From Verrucomicrobiia bacterium (GTDB lineage: Bacteria; Verrucomicrobiota; Verrucomicrobiia; Limisphaerales; JADLHS01), in the NCBI GenBank assembly GCA_026125285.1, contig JAHCLO010000016.1, positions 62,001 to 126,000 on the forward strand: a stretch of 64,000 bases of DNA. Direction: 5' to 3'. Position numbers and translations under genes: made by a program. Positions 1 to 9,296 of this stretch are shown here, in pieces (position 1 is the stretch's first letter; each line of letters starts with the position of its first letter). Under the pieces are notes generated by a model, which was not told the origin of the DNA, made no database searches, and saw only the letters and a program-made list of their open reading frames with translations.

Positions 1-2442
1 TCTTGCCAGAAAGGACTTTGCCGCCTTGTCCACCTCGAGTACCAGATTCTGTTGGGCCAACCGCTGGTCCAACCGGGCGAGTTGGATGTCCACGATGCGG
101 TCCAGTTCCGCCGCGCGCAAGCTGTGGAAAATGATGATGTCATCCACGCGATTCAGAAACTCAGGGCGGAAGTGCGCCTTCAACTCCAGCTTCACCACAC
201 GCTCCAGTTCCGCCTCGTCCTTCACCGACCCTTCGCTGCCCGCATAGAACTCCTGGATCACGGGCGAGCCGACGTTGCTCGTCATGATCACGATGGTACT
301 CTTGAAATCCACCATCCGCCCCTGCCCGTCGGTCAGGCGGCCATCGTCCAACACTTGCAGCAACACGTTGAAGACGTCGTGATGCGCTTTCTCAATTTCG
401 TCGAAGAGCACGACCGAGTAAGGCCGGCGGCGCACGGCTTCGCTGAGTTGTCCGCCTTCGTCGTAACCAACGTAGCCCGGCGGCGCGCCAAGCAACCGCG
501 CGACGGTGTGTTTCTCCATGTACTCGCTCATGTCAATCCGCACCATCGCGTTCTCGTCATCAAACAGAAATTCCGCCAGCGCGCGGGCGGTTTCGGTTTT
601 GCCCACGCCGGTCGGGCCGAGGAAGATGAACGAACCAATGGGCCGGTTCGGATCCTGCAATCCGCTGCGCGAGCGGCGCACGGCGTTGGCCACCGCCTTG
701 ACCGCCTCGGCCTGGCCGATGACGCGCTGCTGCAAACGTTCCTCCATGTGGAGCAGCTTCTCGCGTTCGCCTTCCAACATGCGCGCCACGGGGATATGCG
801 TCCACGAAGCGACGACACGGGCGATGTCCTCGTCGGTCACTTCCTGCCGCAGCAGTGAGTGGCGCGCGGACTGCACCGACTGCTTTTCGATGTCGGCCAG
901 CTTCTTTTCCAGTTCGGGAATCTTGCCGTATTGGATCTCCGCCGACTTCGTGAGATCGCCGCGCCGCTGCGCCTGTTCCAGTTCAATCCGTGCCTGCTCC
1001 AGTTGCTGTTGGACGATGCTGACGGCATTGACCGCGGTCTTTTCATTTTGCCATTGCGCGGTGAGGGCCTTGGACTGTTCCTTCAAATTGGCGAGTTCTT
1101 CGTCGAGCAACTTGAGCCGCTCCTTGCTCGCGGCGTCCTTCTCTTTGGCCAGCGAGGTGCGCTCAATCTCCAACTGCAGAATCTGTCGGTCCAACTGATC
1201 GAGTTCCGTGGGCTTGGAATCCAGTTCCATCTTGATGCGCGACGCCGCCTCGTCCACCAGATCAATCGCCTTGTCCGGCAGAAAACGGTCCGCGATGTAG
1301 CGATGCGACAAGGTGGTCGCCGCCACCAGCGCCGCGTCCTGGATCCGCACGCCGTGGTGAACCTCGTAGCGTTCCTTCAGCCCGCGCAAGATGGCAATGG
1401 TCGCCTCAACGGACGGCTCGGCCACCATCACCGGTTGAAAGCGCCGCTCCAGCGCCGGGTCCTTCTCAATGTGCTTGCGATACTCATCCAACGTCGTGGC
1501 CCCCACGCAACGCAACTCTCCCCGCGCGAGTTGCGGCTTCATGATGTTGGCCGCGTCCGTCGCGCCTTCGGCGGCGCCGGCCCCGACCAGGGTGTGCAAC
1601 TCGTCAATGAACAGAATGATCTTTCCCTCACTCGCGACGATCTCCTTGAGGAAAGCCTTGAGGCGGTCCTCAAACTCACCGCGATACTTGGCCCCCGCGA
1701 TCATCGCGCTCAGGTCCATCGCCACGAGCCGTTTGTGCTTGAGCGATTCCGGAATGTCCCCGCTGACGATGCGCCGGGCCAAGCCTTCCGCGATGGCGGT
1801 CTTGCCCACTCCCGGTTCGCCAATGAGCACCGGATTGTTCTTCGTGCGGCGGGTCAGCACCTGCATGACCCGGCGGATTTCCTCGTCGCGCCCGATTACC
1901 GGATCAATCTTGCCCTGCCGTGCCAGGGCCGTGAGGTCGCGGCCATACTTCTCCAGCGCCTGAAACTTCCCTTCCGGAGTCGGATCCGTCACCCGCTGAT
2001 TGCCGCGCAAATCGGCAAGGGCTTTGAGCACGGTATCCCGCTTCAACCCCTGCGCCCTGAAAAGTTGCTTGAGCGCCGCGCCCCCTGCATCCAGCAAACC
2101 CAGCCACAGGTGCTCGGTGCTGATGTAATCGTCCTTGAGTTTGGCGGCCTCGCTCTGGGCGGCATCCAGCGCCTGCTTCAGGTCCGGCGTGGAATACAGG
2201 TCGCCGCTGCTCGTGCCCTGCACCTTGTGCCGCCGCCCCAGTTCCTGCTCGACGTCCGCCCGCAACCGGGCCGCCGACACGCCGATCTTCTCCAATAATT
2301 CCGGCACGAGACTTTCGCTCTGGCTCAGGAGCGCCAGGAGCAAATGCTCACAATCCACTGCCTGATGCGAATAGCCGTGCGCGAGGCGTTGCGCTTCCGC
2401 CAGCGCCTCCTGCGATTTGATCGTCAACTTGTCCAATTGCAT
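1..2442 (-). CDS. clpB: ATP-dependent disaggregase ClpB (C-terminal end outside window)
   Basis: Hsp100 disaggregase that threads aggregated proteins through a hexameric ring together with DnaK, in the cytoplasm. The window holds about the first 814 residues of a protein normally near 860. Order seen: Clp N-domain repeats (1-145), NBD1 with Walker A GEPGVGKT near 207 and Walker B near 275-283 (ILFIDELH), a long coiled-coil middle domain (about 400-530) that separates ClpB from ClpA, and NBD2 with Walker A GPTGVGKT near 608 and Walker B LFDEIEKA near 678. Start ATG ([14 protein letters not shown]) is read leftwards from 2442. No CIRCE-type heat-shock operator is visible upstream. Identity is certain; only the C-terminal oligomerisation end is missing. 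Confidence 0.97.
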
Positions 2443-2576
2443 GGCTAAATAATTGTAGCGACACTAACCCATCGTCAAGGGGCGTCCACCCGGTCACCAC
2501 TATTCAGCTTGATGGAGCGCCGATTTGTAGTCGGCTTCAACCGCTTGTGAGGGGCAGGCTGTTCGTGTTCATTACA

Positions 2577-2606
2577 CCGAAAGCCGGCTGCAAGCCGGCG
2601 CTCCGT
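2577..2606. repeat. GAGCGC-type palindromic intergenic repeat, single unit
   Basis: A GCCGGC/GCCGGC stem (2583-2588 with 2594-2599) around loop TGCAA, followed by GCGCTCC. It belongs to a family of short hairpins in this window that share a GCGCTCC/GAGCGC edge and a variable stem (see 3874-4200 and 63046-63206). Confidence 0.6.
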
Positions 2607-2721
2607 AGCCAAACGGAGAATTGCCGGTATGGGCACATCCTCCGAACAAAAATAATTTGCCTTGGACCGCATTTGTCCCACCCGACCCGTCACACTGGCC
2701 TCAAAAATGAAAGGCACAACG

Positions 2722-2928
2722 ATGACAAATCAACAAATGGAACTTGGTTTCGGTGGACAGAAACTCCTCGGCCGATCTGGCCGGCGGGAACGGCGGATGA
2801 CGCGGGCCAAGTGGTGGTTCACGAATATGCGCCAAATTGTGGACCGCGCCATGGACTGGCAGGCCGCGGCCGAACCACGACCTGAACAAACCTGGTTGCC
2901 CGGCGCCAATCGGCAGGTGCGGGTTTAA
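2722..2928 (+). CDS. Small basic conserved protein (68 aa), unknown function
   Basis: Starts MTNQQMELGFGG, then an Arg-rich segment (SGRRERRMTRAKWWF) and a Trp-rich middle (RAKWWFTNMRQIVDRAMDW), ending with a Pro-rich tail. I recall similar short proteins with the RAxWWFxxMRQxVDxA(L/M)DW pattern in other verrucomicrobia, but I cannot search to confirm it. The composition suggests a nucleic-acid- or protein-binding peptide; no catalytic motif is present. An alternative ATG at 2707 adds five residues; 2722 is preferred because the conserved-looking part begins there. It stands alone between clpB (divergent) and a strong terminator at 2992-3022. Confidence 0.6.
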   Translation: MTNQQMELGFGGQKLLGRSGRRERRMTRAKWWFTNMRQIVDRAMDWQAAAEPRPEQTWLPGANRQVRV

Positions 2929-2991
2929 TGGAGGCATCGCGCGACCACCCGCCCCACAACAGCCAACGTGGCTGGCGCGCGCAAAACCAAC

Positions 2992-3022
2992 AAAACCGCC
3001 GGACGCAATGTCCGGCGGTTTT
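2992..3022 (+). terminator. Intrinsic terminator after the 68-aa gene
   Basis: A perfect 13-bp inverted repeat (2992-3004 with 3010-3022) around loop GCAAT, GC-rich core and terminal A4/T4. It can act in both directions, ending the small gene and insulating the cas9 remnant. Confidence 0.85.
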
Positions 3023-3163
3023 AAGAAACGCTTTTTAACGCGGCGTGTCCGGCTGGCGGACAGTGAACCTGTCAATTCAGGAGTCGGTCTGCGTTATCTA
3101 ACTTTGTCTTGATTCCGGGAGAACGATTAACTGAAATGGCCCTGCCAAGCCAAGAGGAAAGTT

Positions 3164-3907
3164 ATGTCGGAACAAAACGCCGCACCTAGACTGGAACTCG
3201 CGTTCGATGTTGGCCACAGCTCCATCGGCTGGGCCGTGCTGCAATCGGTGGGGCGAGTGTCCTCGCGAGCCGAAACCCCGAACGTGAACCTACTCGGCTG
3301 CGGCGTCGTCACCTTCGGGGCGGATGATTGCCTCGCTTCCCAACGTCGTGCTTTTCGTCGGCAACGCCGACGTATCCGCGCAACGCGCCTCCGTATCGCC
3401 CGATTGAAGCGCCTGCTCGCACACCATGGCGTGCTAACCAATGAACAACTTGACACCGTCGTATCGTCGAGTCCCTGGCTGCTTGCCGCGCGCGTGCTGC
3501 GGGGCGGGGAGAAACTCTCATGGGCAGAATTGTGGGATGTCCTGCGTTGGTATGCGCACAATCGCGGTTACGATGGGAATAAGGGCTGGAGTCGGCAGGA
3601 AGTTGCGGCGAGTGCTGAGGACACGGAAAAGGAACAGAAGGCTCATGAACTTCTCGATGCCTTCCGCGCAAAGCACGGGCGCGAAGGAACGATGGCGGAG
3701 GTCTTTTGCGACCGGCTTGGACTCGACCCACTGGCAGCGAAAGCATCGTCGCAAGTCCGGTTTCGTGATCTTGGCGCCGCCTTTCCACGCGAAGGTGTAG
3801 AAGCTGAAGTTGAACGCATCCTGCGAGCGCAGGGCGTGGAGGAAAAGGCAATCGTGGCGATCACCCACTGCGGGGCGCTTTGCGCACCGCCGCGCTCCGG
3901 TTCTTGA
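3164..3907 (+). pseudogene. cas9: Truncated type II-C Cas9: RuvC-I motif and bridge helix only
   Basis: The frame encodes 247 residues. RuvC-I is at 10-26 (ELAFDVGHSSIGWAVL, catalytic Asp15), a GCGVVTFGADDC segment follows, then an Arg-rich bridge helix (about 57-92, RRAFRRQRRRIRATRLRIARL) and the start of the recognition lobe (ELWDVLRWYAHNRGYDGN). Residue order and spacing match the Akkermansia-like II-C Cas9 branch as I remember it, up to about residue 232 (VEAEVERILRAQGVEEKAI). After that the frame runs into a palindromic repeat and stops. No HNH, RuvC-II/III or PAM-interacting part is found in the next kilobase, and no cas1/cas2, tracrRNA or array is visible. An intact GAGG ribosome site precedes the ATG. 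A full Cas9 is about 1000-1100 residues, so this is a remnant. Confidence 0.9.
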
Positions 3908-4200
3908 AGAATCTCCACGATTTCCGAATCGCGCATCAGGACCGTGAACTCGCAAGAGCGCAGCGCCGGTTTTCCAACCGGCGTGCGCCGACGGGAAAAT
4001 CGGCGTTACCGACAAACGGCTCAGAAAGACAATTCGGCAAATCCAGATTCGCGCTTTGAAGCTTTGAAGCGGCGCAAGGCGTCCCTCCCGCGCGGAGAGC
4101 GGCGCTGAAGACGCACGCACTCCAAACGCTGCGCGACGTTTTCAGCGACAACGAACCGCGCGCAGCGTCTGGAGTGCGGCGGATTCATCGCCGCTTTGGG
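3874..4200. repeat. Cluster of palindromic intergenic repeats at the cas9 break
   Basis: Several hairpins lie head to tail. GGCGCTTTGCGCACCGCCGC at 3874 abuts the last cas9-like codons. GCCGGTT-ttcc-AACCGGC is at 3965-3982, CGCCGA/TCGGCG at 3986-4005, and a GCGGCGGAT/ATCGCCGC hairpin at 4176-4194, between GAGCGC- or GGAGTGCGGCG-type edges. The composition matches other non-coding repeats in the window. No gene is seen from here to 4608. Confidence 0.6.
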
Positions 4201-4608
4201 CACAGAGGTTCCGGAGGAGTTTCGACCTGCGAGAATGGACGCGCATTGGGGCCATGAACCGCAGCGGCGTCTCGGTAGAGCGCCTGATCCCGCATGGTGT
4301 CCCCTGCTTCAAACTCTGCGGCTCTGGTCATTGGCTGGTTCCGGGGTTGTCGTTTGTTCATTTGACGGATTCCCCGCTTTCCTTTCAATATCCGGTCCGG
4401 CGATGAATTTTGAACCCTGCCCTCAGAATTGGCCCCTAACAACGGCTGAAGCCGCGCCCTGCCCAGTTGTCAATCGGGGCGCAAGTAGGTGTCGCACGGC
4501 AGCGCGTCAGCCGTGGGAACGCCATCGCACGCGAAGCGTTCACCGGCGACGAATTTGGCCGGCGACCCTGTGAACGACTCGTCTCCAGAACGAGCGATTT
4601 CGCCCGGC

Positions 4609-6405
4609 ATGTCGAGCTTTCCGCCCACGCCGCACGGTTTGCCCGTCGGTTGGCTGCGGGCCGCCAGCGGGTTGGTGTTGGTGTCGCTCATTGTCCAACA
4701 CGGGTTTCCCCTCGGCGAGGTTTGGGATCGCGGTTTGCATGGATTGAATTTCCTCCTGGCGGCGATTTTCGGCGCCGATCTGGTGCTGGCCAGGCAAACC
4801 GTGCGCCGGCGACCGCAGGTGTTCGGGGCGCGGCGGGTCGAGTATTGGCTGCTGGGCGGATTCCTCGTGCTGCTGATTTTGACCTGGATGCTGCCGGCGG
4901 CGGCCGCGGGCAGGCTGGCGAGTTTCCTGCATTTGGAATCGCGCGTGGAGTTGGCGTGCAACCTGGCAAAGTTGTTTCTGCTCCTGAGCCTCTGTGTGCA
5001 ATGGTTGCGGGCGACGGGCCGGTTGTTTGGCAAGGGGACGCGGCCGGAACTGATCCTCGCCGGCTCGTTCGCTGCCGTAATCGTCATCGGCACCTTTTTG
5101 TTGCTGCTGCCGAACGCAACGACGGTCGGGCGCCAGCCCACGGGCATGGTGGACGCTTTGTTCACCGCTACCAGTGCCACTTGTGTAACGGGACTGGTGG
5201 TGCGCGATACGGGCACCGATTTCTCCGGCTTCGGCCAGACCATCATCTTTGCCCTGTTCCAGGTCGGCGGACTGGGCATCATTACCTTCGTTGCCTTGCT
5301 GTCGTTTTTTTCGACGCGGGCTTTGCCGGTGCCGCAGATGGTCATCTTCCGGCAGCTTGCCAATGCGCCGACGCGGTCGGATTTGAAGCGGCAAATCGTC
5401 GGCATCGTGGTGGCGGCGGGAGTCATCGAATTGGTCGGGGCAACGCTGCTATACCAATTTCTAACGCCGGAGGGCGACGCGCTGGCGCGGCTTCAGTGGT
5501 CGTTATTCCATGCGGTGTCGGCTTTTTGCAACGCCGGCTTCGCCCTTCATGCGGATAGCTTGGAGGGCTTTAGAACTAACCCCGGGGTGAATTTCACGAT
5601 TATGGGATTGATCGTCCTGGGCGGGCTTGGCTTCCTGACCATTTCGGAACTGGTGGGCTTCCGGCTGACACGGTCGCCATTCTTCCGCCGGATGAAGTTC
5701 TTTCGTCGGTTGCACGCCGGGCAGGTGCCGGCACGGTTGAGCGTGCAAACCAAACTCGGCTTGACGGTGATGTTGGCCATGCTGGTAGTGGGAGCGGTCG
5801 GGTTCTGGAGTCTGGAAGGACGCCATTTGTTGCGGGAACACTCCGTTGGCGAGAGCTTCCTGATCTCCGCGTTTCAATCCGTGACACCACGCACAGCGGG
5901 CTTCAACACCGTCCCCATCGGGCAGTTGCAGGATGCCACGCTCGTGCTGTTGATGATGCTGATGGTGGTGGGCGCGAACCCGGTTTCGGCGGGTGGCGGC
6001 GTCAAGACGGTGAGTTTCGGGATTTTGCTGCTGGCCTTGCGGGCCATGGTGGCCCGGCGTGACCGGGTTGAGGCGTTCGGGCGAACCATCCCTGCCCGGA
6101 CCCTGGTTGCGGCGTTGAGCGTGTTCGTCATCTACATCATCTCCGCGGTCGTCGGTGTGTTCCTGCTCTCGATCTTTGACTCGCATCTGGCGTTTAAGAG
6201 CCGGGTGTTTGAAGTGATTTCGGCACTCAGCACCGTGGGACTTTCGACGGGAATCACGGCGGAATTGAGTATGGGGAGCAAACTGGTGCTGTGCGTGGCC
6301 ATGTTCGTGGGCCGGGTGGGACCGCTGGCGCTGGTGCTTTCAGTCTTTCATAGCGGCCGTCCCCTGGCGTATGAATTTCCCGAAGAAGAAGTCGTGGTGG
6401 GTTGA
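4609..6405 (+). CDS. ktrB: TrkH/KtrB-type potassium uptake membrane subunit
   Basis: Integral-membrane K+ translocation subunit of the SKT superfamily (four membrane-P-loop-membrane repeats). The four selectivity-filter loops are visible: TSATCVTGL near 185, SAFCNAGF near 303, VTPRTAGFN near 423 and SALSTVGLSTG near 540. About 130 residues with extra hydrophobic helices precede the first repeat, longer than a minimal KtrB. I chose ATG 4609 (MSSFPPTPHG) because upstream residues are low-complexity; a GTG at 4489 in the same frame, preceded by GGGG, is a real alternative. A gene for the cytoplasmic gating subunit follows 73 bp downstream, so the two form a Ktr-type system. Confidence 0.9.
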   Translation: MSSFPPTPHGLPVGWLRAASGLVLVSLIVQHGFPLGEVWDRGLHGLNFLLAAIFGADLVLARQTVRRRPQVFGARRVEYWLLGGFLVLLILTWMLPAAAAGRLASFLHLESRVELACNLAKLFLLLSLCVQWLRATGRLFGKGTRPELILAGSFAAVIVIGTFLLLLPNATTVGRQPTGMVDALFTATSATCVTGLVVRDTGTDFSGFGQTIIFALFQVGGLGIITFVALLSFFSTRALPVPQMVIFRQLANAPTRSDLKRQIVGIVVAAGVIELVGATLLYQFLTPEGDALARLQWSLFHAVSAFCNAGFALHADSLEGFRTNPGVNFTIMGLIVLGGLGFLTISELVGFRLTRSPFFRRMKFFRRLHAGQVPARLSVQTKLGLTVMLAMLVVGAVGFWSLEGRHLLREHSVGESFLISAFQSVTPRTAGFNTVPIGQLQDATLVLLMMLMVVGANPVSAGGGVKTVSFGILLLALRAMVARRDRVEAFGRTIPARTLVAALSVFVIYIISAVVGVFLLSIFDSHLAFKSRVFEVISALSTVGLSTGITAELSMGSKLVLCVAMFVGRVGPLALVLSVFHSGRPLAYEFPEEEVVVG

Positions 6406-6478
6406 ACTGAGTATTCAGCGTCCAGCCTCCGTCCCGCGAACGCAGGACGGCTGAGTGAACCAAGCAGATTACTGATTT

Positions 6479-7162
6479 ATGAAATGTGCTGTGATTGGAT
6501 TGGGTGAATTTGGCCGCGCGGCCGCGTTGAGCCTCGCACAGAATGGTGTGGAGGTCATCGCGGTGGACAACAATCTGGACCGGGTGAATGGGATCAAGGA
6601 CGAGGTGGCGTTGGCGGTGCGGTTGGATGCGAGCCAGGAACACGCGTTGCAGGCGCACGGCATTGGCGAGGTGGACGTGTTGATCGCCGCCATCGGCGCG
6701 AACTTCGAAGCGCAAGTCTTGACCGTCGTGCATGGCAAACGCGCCGGCATCAAGAAGATCGTGGCGCGTGCCACCACGCCGGACCATCACCGCGTGCTGG
6801 TGGCCGTTGGGGCCGACGAGGTTTTCAATCCCGAAGAGGAAGCGGCGCGGTGGATGGTGCAGCGGCTGTTGATTACCAACATCACCAGTTACTTTGAATT
6901 GGCCGAGGGCTTTAGCATCGTGGAGGTGAAGGCGCCCGTGGGGATCGTGGGCAAGAGCCTTGGACAACTCGACCTGCGCCGGCGCTTCCGCGTAAATCTG
7001 GTGGCGATCAAACGAATGATGGCCAACGAACGCGGACACAAAGTGCTGGAACGATTCAACCCCGTGCCGCTCCCGGATGAGATCATCCAATCCGAAGATG
7101 TGCTGGCGCTGGTGGGCAGTGTGATTGACCTGGCCAACTTCATGGGAGAATACGTGGCGTAA
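6479..7162 (+). CDS. ktrA: KtrA/TrkA-type RCK regulatory subunit of K+ uptake
   Basis: Soluble ring-forming regulator that binds nucleotide and gates the membrane subunit encoded just upstream. The 227-residue length means one RCK_N plus one RCK_C domain, as in KtrA rather than the doubled TrkA. The Rossmann dinucleotide motif GLGEFG lies at residues 6-11, and the second strand ends with an acidic residue (VIAVDNN). RCK_C spans about 140-222. Likely co-transcribed with ktrB. Confidence 0.9.
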   Translation: MKCAVIGLGEFGRAAALSLAQNGVEVIAVDNNLDRVNGIKDEVALAVRLDASQEHALQAHGIGEVDVLIAAIGANFEAQVLTVVHGKRAGIKKIVARATTPDHHRVLVAVGADEVFNPEEEAARWMVQRLLITNITSYFELAEGFSIVEVKAPVGIVGKSLGQLDLRRRFRVNLVAIKRMMANERGHKVLERFNPVPLPDEIIQSEDVLALVGSVIDLANFMGEYVA

Positions 7163-7830
<668 letters not shown>

Positions 7831-7847
7831 CCCGGCAAACATCTCAA

Positions 7848-9296
7848 ATGAAAATCCATTCCCACTTCAAACCACACTCAGTTCTCAGCTACTTCCTGGC
7901 CTCTGTGCTAATGACCGGCTTGCTGGTCATGCCCGCGCTGGCGCAACCCGAACCGGCCGCTGTGGCCGGAGCGGTCGCTGAAGCCGTCAAAGAAGCGGCG
8001 GACGATGCTCCCAAGTACGCCGACATGGACGCCTTCGCGGCGTCACCCGGCTACGCGATATTCACGACGCACAATTTGTGGATGATGATCGCGGCGGCGC
8101 TGGTGTTCATCATGCACCTCGGGTTCGCCACGTTGGAGTCGGGCCTGACACGCTCGAAGAACACCACCAACATTTTGTTCAAGAACACCATGATCGTGTG
8201 CATCGGCTTGCTGACTTACGCGTTGATGGGTTTCAACCTGATGTATCCGGGCGATGCGTTTGAAGGCAAGTTCATCGGCTTTGGCGGCTTTGGTGTCGGC
8301 GTTGGAACTGGAACGGAAATGGCGAACCTGACCGACACGTATAACGCGGGCTACACCTACTGGACTGACTTTCTCTTCCAAGCGATGTTCGCCGCTACGG
8401 CTGCGACCATTGTTTCCGGCGCGGTGGCCGAACGCATCAAGTTGAGCACGTTCCTCGTCTTTTCAACGCTGTTTGTAGCGATTGCCTATCCGATCACGGG
8501 CTTCTGGAAGTGGGGCAACGGCTGGCTGAACACTATGGGAACGCCTTTCTATGATTTTGCCGGCTCCACCGTGGTACATTCTGTCGGCGGCTGGGGGGCA
8601 CTTGCTGGCGCGATCGTTCTCGGTCCGCGCATCGGCAAGTATGTCGGCGGTCGGATCCGCCCCATTCTGGGTCACAGCATGCCGCTGGCGACCATTGGCG
8701 TGTTCCTGCTCTGGCTGGGTTGGTTTGGTTTCAACGGCGGCTCCGTGTTGTCGGCCGATCCGGCGCTGGTTTCTTTGACGCTCGTGACGACTTGTCTGGC
8801 GGCGGCGGCGGGAGGCGTGGCGGCGGCGATGACCGCGTGGACGGTTCTCAAAAAGCCGGATCTTTCCATGGCCCTGAACGGAGTGCTGGCCGGATTGGTG
8901 GGGATCACGGCTGGTGCCGATCAGATGGCCGCCGGTTCGGCCATCATCATTGGCTTGGTGGCGGGAGTGTTGGTGGTCTTCTCGGTGTTGGTTTTCGACA
9001 AGCTTAGGATTGACGATCCCGTGGGCGCCATTTCCGTGCATCTCGTATGCGGCATCTGGGGCACGTTGGCGGTGGGTTTGTTCGGCGCCTTGAAAGGCGG
9101 CGCGCAGATTGTCGCACAGCTCAAAGGCATCCTGAGTATTGGTGCGTTCACTTTCATCTTCGCGCTGGTGCTGTTTCTCATCCTCAAGGTAACGATGGGA
9201 CTGCGCGTGGATGCGGAAGAGGAGACCGAGGGTCTGGATATTGGCGAACATGGGAACCACGCCTATCCGGATTTCCAACCCATGGCAGAGAAATAG
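7848..9296 (+). CDS. amtB: Ammonium transporter Amt, copy 1
   Basis: Trimeric inner-membrane ammonium channel, 482 residues. An N-terminal signal peptide ends near ALAQ (residue 33), followed by about 11 transmembrane segments. Both pore histidines of the family are in place: GSTVVHSVGG near 243 and ISVHLVCGIWG near 397. The cytoplasmic tail has the LRVDAEEETEGLDIGEHG form that contacts GlnK. It is the second gene of a sigma-54 glnK-amtB operon. Its sequence diverges clearly from amtB2, unlike the near-identical glnK partners. Confidence 0.94.
   Translation: MKIHSHFKPHSVLSYFLASVLMTGLLVMPALAQPEPAAVAGAVAEAVKEAADDAPKYADMDAFAASPGYAIFTTHNLWMMIAAALVFIMHLGFATLESGLTRSKNTTNILFKNTMIVCIGLLTYALMGFNLMYPGDAFEGKFIGFGGFGVGVGTGTEMANLTDTYNAGYTYWTDFLFQAMFAATAATIVSGAVAERIKLSTFLVFSTLFVAIAYPITGFWKWGNGWLNTMGTPFYDFAGSTVVHSVGGWGALAGAIVLGPRIGKYVGGRIRPILGHSMPLATIGVFLLWLGWFGFNGGSVLSADPALVSLTLVTTCLAAAAGGVAAAMTAWTVLKKPDLSMALNGVLAGLVGITAGADQMAAGSAIIIGLVAGVLVVFSVLVFDKLRIDDPVGAISVHLVCGIWGTLAVGLFGALKGGAQIVAQLKGILSIGAFTFIFALVLFLILKVTMGLRVDAEEETEGLDIGEHGNHAYPDFQPMAEK

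What the first reader, a model, noticed from the sequence alone, without database searches (positions are those of the whole stretch)
3164..4200. Orphan Cas9 N-terminus ending exactly in a palindromic repeat cluster
A clean RuvC-I motif and bridge helix in a frame with an intact ribosome site stop at about residue 232, and the next bases are dispersed hairpin repeats. The rest of Cas9, the adaptation genes and an array are absent. It is either a decayed locus opened by repeat insertion or a retained short RuvC/bridge-helix protein.
Basis: partly seen in the sequence, partly recalled or inferred. Interest (0 to 1): 0.6.

Follow-up and report, generated by a model that had tools for sequence, protein, structure and literature searches.

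The report
Relic of a Cas9 CRISPR locus
This is the broken front end of a CRISPR-Cas9 defence locus, its guide-scaffold RNA gene plus the first fifth of cas9, with the rest lost at a cluster of genome-wide palindromic repeats; it looks like a recent, ordinary gene loss rather than a new kind of protein.

Summary
Confirmed: window 3164-3862 encodes about the first 223-232 residues of a type II Cas9, 67-74% identical over that part to three intact 1156-1159 aa verrucomicrobial Cas9s. Within 37 nt of the last Cas9-like codon begins a mosaic of dispersed palindromic repeats (3899-4300; 88 matching pieces in this genome). No Cas9 body, type II array or second tracrRNA exists elsewhere in the 95%-complete genome; its cas1 genes belong to type I-C and I-E loci. 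It carries a 16-nt insertion seen in no modelled relative. The coding stub shows no decay: 53 of 54 clade-invariant residues are kept and branch rates are normal. If unconstrained, it has drifted at most about 0.03-0.04 substitutions per site, so the break is recent. No other genome of the family has this cas9; the congener carries a different, clipped type I cas locus at the same point. Best explanation: a horizontally acquired type II-C-like locus recently truncated by rearrangement at REP-type repeats. A retained short protein is not excluded but has no positive support. Interest low.

The parts
2647..2980 (+). clpB-side flank shared with the congener G001, including a small ORF (ATG 2722 to 2928); its end is the left edge of the variable segment
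   Evidence: blastn 74% to L134 5170-5502, ending there; G004 shares it to 2943
2986..3117 (-). tracrRNA gene, ending in an intrinsic-terminator hairpin (about 2992-3022)
   Evidence: covariance model R1 built without the window: 76.7 bits, E 4.3e-18, full-length match 1-118; the only hit of note in the genome; fold z -3.29
3102..3116 (-). anti-repeat GGAATCAAGACAAAG, pairing with the type II repeat of relatives (..GGAATCAAGGCAAAGC), with the same G-to-A difference as the anti-repeat of intact loci
3068..3083 (-). 16-nt insertion in the tracrRNA core, absent from all 19 modelled relatives; the predicted fold departs from the conserved one
3164..3862 (+). cas9 N-terminal stub: RuvC-I, bridge helix, start of the REC lobe
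3863..3907 (+). non-Cas9 codons (including the stop) read after the break
3899..4300 (.). mosaic of dispersed palindromic repeat modules (about 3899-4031, 4037-4218, 4205-4300), including a 25-bp inverted repeat 4116-4140/4154-4178
3959..4009 (.). REP-type hairpins CGCCGGTTTTCCAACCGGCG and CGACGGGAAAATCGGCG, near-identical to repeats around a Y1 (RAYT-like) transposase gene in the same genome

Best explanation
A degenerate type II-C-like CRISPR-Cas9 locus. A locus with the order tracrRNA (divergent) / cas9-cas1-cas2-array was acquired beside clpB in this lineage. A rearrangement at REP-type palindromic repeats then removed cas9 from codon ~232 onward together with cas1, cas2 and the array, leaving the tracrRNA gene and a cas9 stub. 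The stub has no RuvC-II, HNH, RuvC-III or PAM-interacting part, so it cannot cut or be guided; CRISPR immunity in this cell would rest on its type I-C and I-E loci. Shown: homology, missing parts, order in relatives, repeat dispersion, absence from the family. Inferred: acquisition by transfer, the deletion mechanism and its recency.
For: Intact relatives have the full layout with the tracrRNA in the same place and orientation. The break coincides to within 37 nt with a repeat mosaic having 88 matching pieces in the genome, part of it REP-like and linked to a Y1 transposase. No Cas9 body, type II repeat or second tracrRNA elsewhere. None of the other 11 family genomes has this cas9, and 28 of 320 in the order have a match. 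Codon constraint is intact on the stub's branch: 53 of 54 clade-invariant residues kept, pos1+2/pos3 branch ratio 0.06, within the range of intact genes. Neutral simulation limits drift since the break to about 0.03-0.04 substitutions/site. Cas9 breakage recurs in the clade (G113, G101).
Against: The stub shows no mutational decay, so pseudogene status rests on missing parts and not on damage inside it. No strain carrying the intact locus at this site was found, so the deletion itself is inferred. Repeat homology could not be shown for the 37 nt nearest the break.
Confidence: 0.86

Rival explanations
1. A retained short RuvC-I/bridge-helix protein that still binds the neighbouring tracrRNA and has a function of its own.
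For: Ribosome site and frame intact, invariant residues kept, tracrRNA still beside it with terminator.
Against: No other genome with this truncation was found among 320 of the order or in the nine relatives found in genome contigs; the break falls at a dispersed repeat and the frame runs into unrelated codons; only one RuvC catalytic motif of three, no HNH; a recent break explains the lack of decay; the tracrRNA has a 16-nt insertion in its core.
Confidence: 0.06
2. Assembly artefact: two unrelated pieces joined at a repeat.
For: The join lies at a multi-copy repeat; the assembly is in 79 contigs, 95% complete.
Against: The junction is in the interior of a 147.9-kb contig. No contig carries the other part of cas9, its cas1 and cas2 or the array. 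If the misjoin were through the repeat, the cas9 side would still run into the repeat, so cas9 would still be interrupted.
Confidence: 0.05
3. The stub is irrelevant but the tracrRNA is kept as a regulatory RNA.
For: Terminator and most conserved tracrRNA positions intact.
Against: Insertion in the core; no type II repeat in the genome to pair with; no partner Cas9. Intactness fits recency.
Confidence: 0.03

Closest known systems
Intact verrucomicrobial type II loci (L012 CAIRYQ010000120.1, L013 VFJQ01000066.1, L014 JAICMR010000176.1)
   Same: Cas9 N-terminus 67-74% identical; tracrRNA upstream on the opposite strand with a matching anti-repeat; tree support 100 for the four together
   Different: They have a full 1156-1159 aa Cas9; cas1, cas2 and an array were seen after it in L012 and L013
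Broken Cas9 loci in the same order: G113 C197 (L092) and G101 C239 (L100)
   Same: Cas9 reduced to N-terminal parts
   Different: L092 keeps Cas9 1-555, cas1, cas2 and an array, with the deletion ending inside the first codons of cas1; L100 has pieces in different frames
REP/BIME repeats with RAYT (TnpA_REP) transposases (PMC2817692, PMC8266576)
   Same: High-copy palindromes in mosaics; a Y1 transposase gene in the genome is surrounded by near-identical hairpins
   Different: REP class, GTAG-type tags and mobility were not tested; most of the mosaic (4037-4300) has no shown transposase link

Membership tests
Type II CRISPR-Cas (functional locus) | cas9 with RuvC-I to III and HNH | tested here: not met
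   Only RuvC-I and bridge helix; in L012 RuvC-II starts at residue 583, the HNH DKDH motif at 667 and RuvC-III HHALDA at 844; no body in the genome
Type II CRISPR-Cas (functional locus) | tracrRNA with anti-repeat | tested here: met
   16-nt insertion in the core
Type II CRISPR-Cas (functional locus) | cas1 and cas2 of the locus | tested here: not met
   none in the window by tblastn; the genome's cas1 genes are of type I loci
Type II CRISPR-Cas (functional locus) | CRISPR array with matching repeat | tested here: not met
   no array in the window; repeat core absent from the genome, one lone 1-mismatch site
Subtype II-C | cas9-cas1-cas2 without csn2 or cas4 | tested here: inconclusive
   relatives have cas9-cas1-cas2-array directly adjacent in nearly all cases; csn2 and cas4 were not searched for explicitly, and L091 has a 2.1-kb gap
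Retained short Cas9-derived protein | same short form conserved in several genomes | tested here: not met
   320 genomes of the order and the nine relatives in genome contigs: other short frames are contig ends (L015, L044) or differently broken (L028/L092, L043/L100)
Retained short Cas9-derived protein | purifying selection after truncation | tested here: inconclusive
   no decay, but too little time may have passed
REP/BIME mosaic | high-copy extragenic palindromes | tested here: met
   (copy number and palindromes; extragenic position of each copy was not checked)
REP/BIME mosaic | association with a RAYT transposase | tested here: inconclusive
   hairpins of 3959-4009 recur around the Y1 transposase gene L118; the other modules were not linked

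The most novel reading that the evidence does not exclude
A Cas9 stub of RuvC-I, bridge helix and the start of REC is kept with its tracrRNA as a small ribonucleoprotein after loss of the nuclease.
Probability: 0.04. Interest if true: 0.65.

Novelty: new member of a known kind. Interest (0 to 1): 0.22.

Why it matters
It is a clear, early snapshot of type II CRISPR loss: the guide-scaffold RNA and the cas9 start are still nearly pristine, the rest is gone at a repeat. It also warns that a good Cas9 N-terminal hit is not a Cas9. If several such stubs proved conserved, that would be a new RNA-binding protein family, but nothing here shows it. The same chromosomal point carrying two different CRISPR loci in two congeners hints at a turnover site.

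Tried and rejected
Leftover Cas9 past the break in any frame: tblastn of seven Cas9s on window 2001-8000 gave only chance matches. Tail-copy explanation for 3862-3898: local alignment to 4161-4260 scored 19, reached by 23 of 500 shuffles, so dropped. Ancestral-sequence reconstruction for branch dN/dS: the machine does not offer it, so I compared terminal branches by codon position and used pairwise NG86 (dN 0.19, dS about 1.9, near saturation). Failed calls from coordinate, thread or form errors: 18, 26, 36, 68. The covariance model holds only 7 base pairs, so it tests sequence more than structure; a low score is not proof of decay, since L020, outside the model, scores 49.8 beside an intact cas9. 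A CreTA-like or tracr-L-like role was considered from memory and rejected for lack of a Cas9 effector. The literature search found no paper on verrucomicrobial type II-C tracrRNA.

Full report
Observation. The frame 3164-3907 is the N-terminus of a Cas9: NCBIfam TIGR01865 matches residues 12-224 at 1.5e-21 and phmmer finds Cas9 chains in the PDB. The closest full-length relatives are 1156-1159 aa verrucomicrobial proteins (L012-L014), 67-74% identical over the shared part. Alignment ends at residue 223 in most cases and about 232 at best. The frame then reads about 15 unrelated codons to its stop.

What follows. From 3899 to 4300 the DNA is a mosaic of repeats dispersed through the genome: 88 matching pieces, the window's own included, resolving into at least three modules found in different combinations elsewhere. 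Two hairpins at 3959-4009 recur around a Y1 (RAYT-like) transposase gene, which marks that part as REP-type (compare PMC2817692 and PMC8266576). The 37 nt between 3862 and 3899 remain unassigned.

What precedes. In 21 relatives the 150 nt upstream of cas9 hold a tracrRNA gene on the opposite strand: anti-repeat, a hairpin core and a terminator. The window has it too, at 3117-2986 minus. A model built without the window finds it at 76.7 bits and finds no second copy in the genome. The anti-repeat has the same one-base difference from the repeat as in intact loci. The window copy alone has a 16-nt insertion in the core, and the predicted fold changes there. That this RNA is transcribed and is a tracrRNA is inferred from position, complementarity and conservation, not measured.

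What is missing. Relatives read cas9-cas1-cas2-array. The window has none of these after the stub. The genome has no other Cas9 and no type II repeat. Its CRISPR loci are type I-C (C2) and type I-E (C12).

Selection and age. The stub keeps 53 of 54 residues invariant in 21 relatives, as intact proteins do (0 to 3 violations each). Its terminal branch has a codon-position ratio of 0.06, inside the range of intact genes. Simulated neutral drift makes the observed state (at most one invariant lost, no stop) unlikely beyond about 0.03-0.04 substitutions per site (P 0.09 at 0.03, 0.007 at 0.05), against a third-position branch of about 1.75, which is itself near saturation. So the break is recent, or the stub is still constrained; sequence alone cannot separate these.

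Site history. None of the other 11 genomes of the family has this cas9. In the congener G001 the clpB side is shared to window position 2980; there the sequence passes into a Cas4-Cas1 fusion lacking about the first 33 model positions, then a four-helix-bundle protein, cas2 and an array of another type. G004 shares the flank to 2943 and shows no cas gene beyond. The segment from about 2981 is therefore variable, and the type II locus was probably acquired in this lineage (inference).

Conclusion. This is a recent relic of a type II-C-like locus. The artefact reading is unlikely because the missing part is nowhere in a 95%-complete assembly and the junction lies inside a 147.9-kb contig. The retained-protein reading has no positive support. 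Subtype II-C is a placement by gene order in the relatives and was not formally tested.

Noticed in passing
L134 5170-8941 (G001:C155, same genus): The same clpB-side point carries a type I cas4-cas1 fusion without its first ~33 model positions, a four-helix-bundle protein, cas2 and an array (repeat GCGCAGTCACCGCGACTTCAGGAATCGTGAGGCGG). Two different CRISPR loci, both clipped, at one site in two congeners.
   Followed up: partly
L092 6501-9721 (G113:C197): A type II locus whose Cas9 is only 555 aa, ending just before RuvC-II and running into cas1 minus its first codons, with cas2, a 4-repeat array and the tracrRNA kept; a second, independent Cas9 truncation or an assembly fault.
   Followed up: partly
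L100 1409-2705 (G101:C239): Cas9-like pieces (residues 76-150 and 275-376) in two different frames: a third decayed cas9.
   Followed up: no
L086 7966-9030 (G000:C2:98100-99030): cas1 of the genome's own type I-C locus is split over two matches about 10 nt apart, a frameshift or sequencing error.
   Followed up: no
L118 (G000:C34:203777-204013): A Y1 transposase gene surrounded by several REP-like hairpins identical or nearly so to window 3959-4009.
   Followed up: partly
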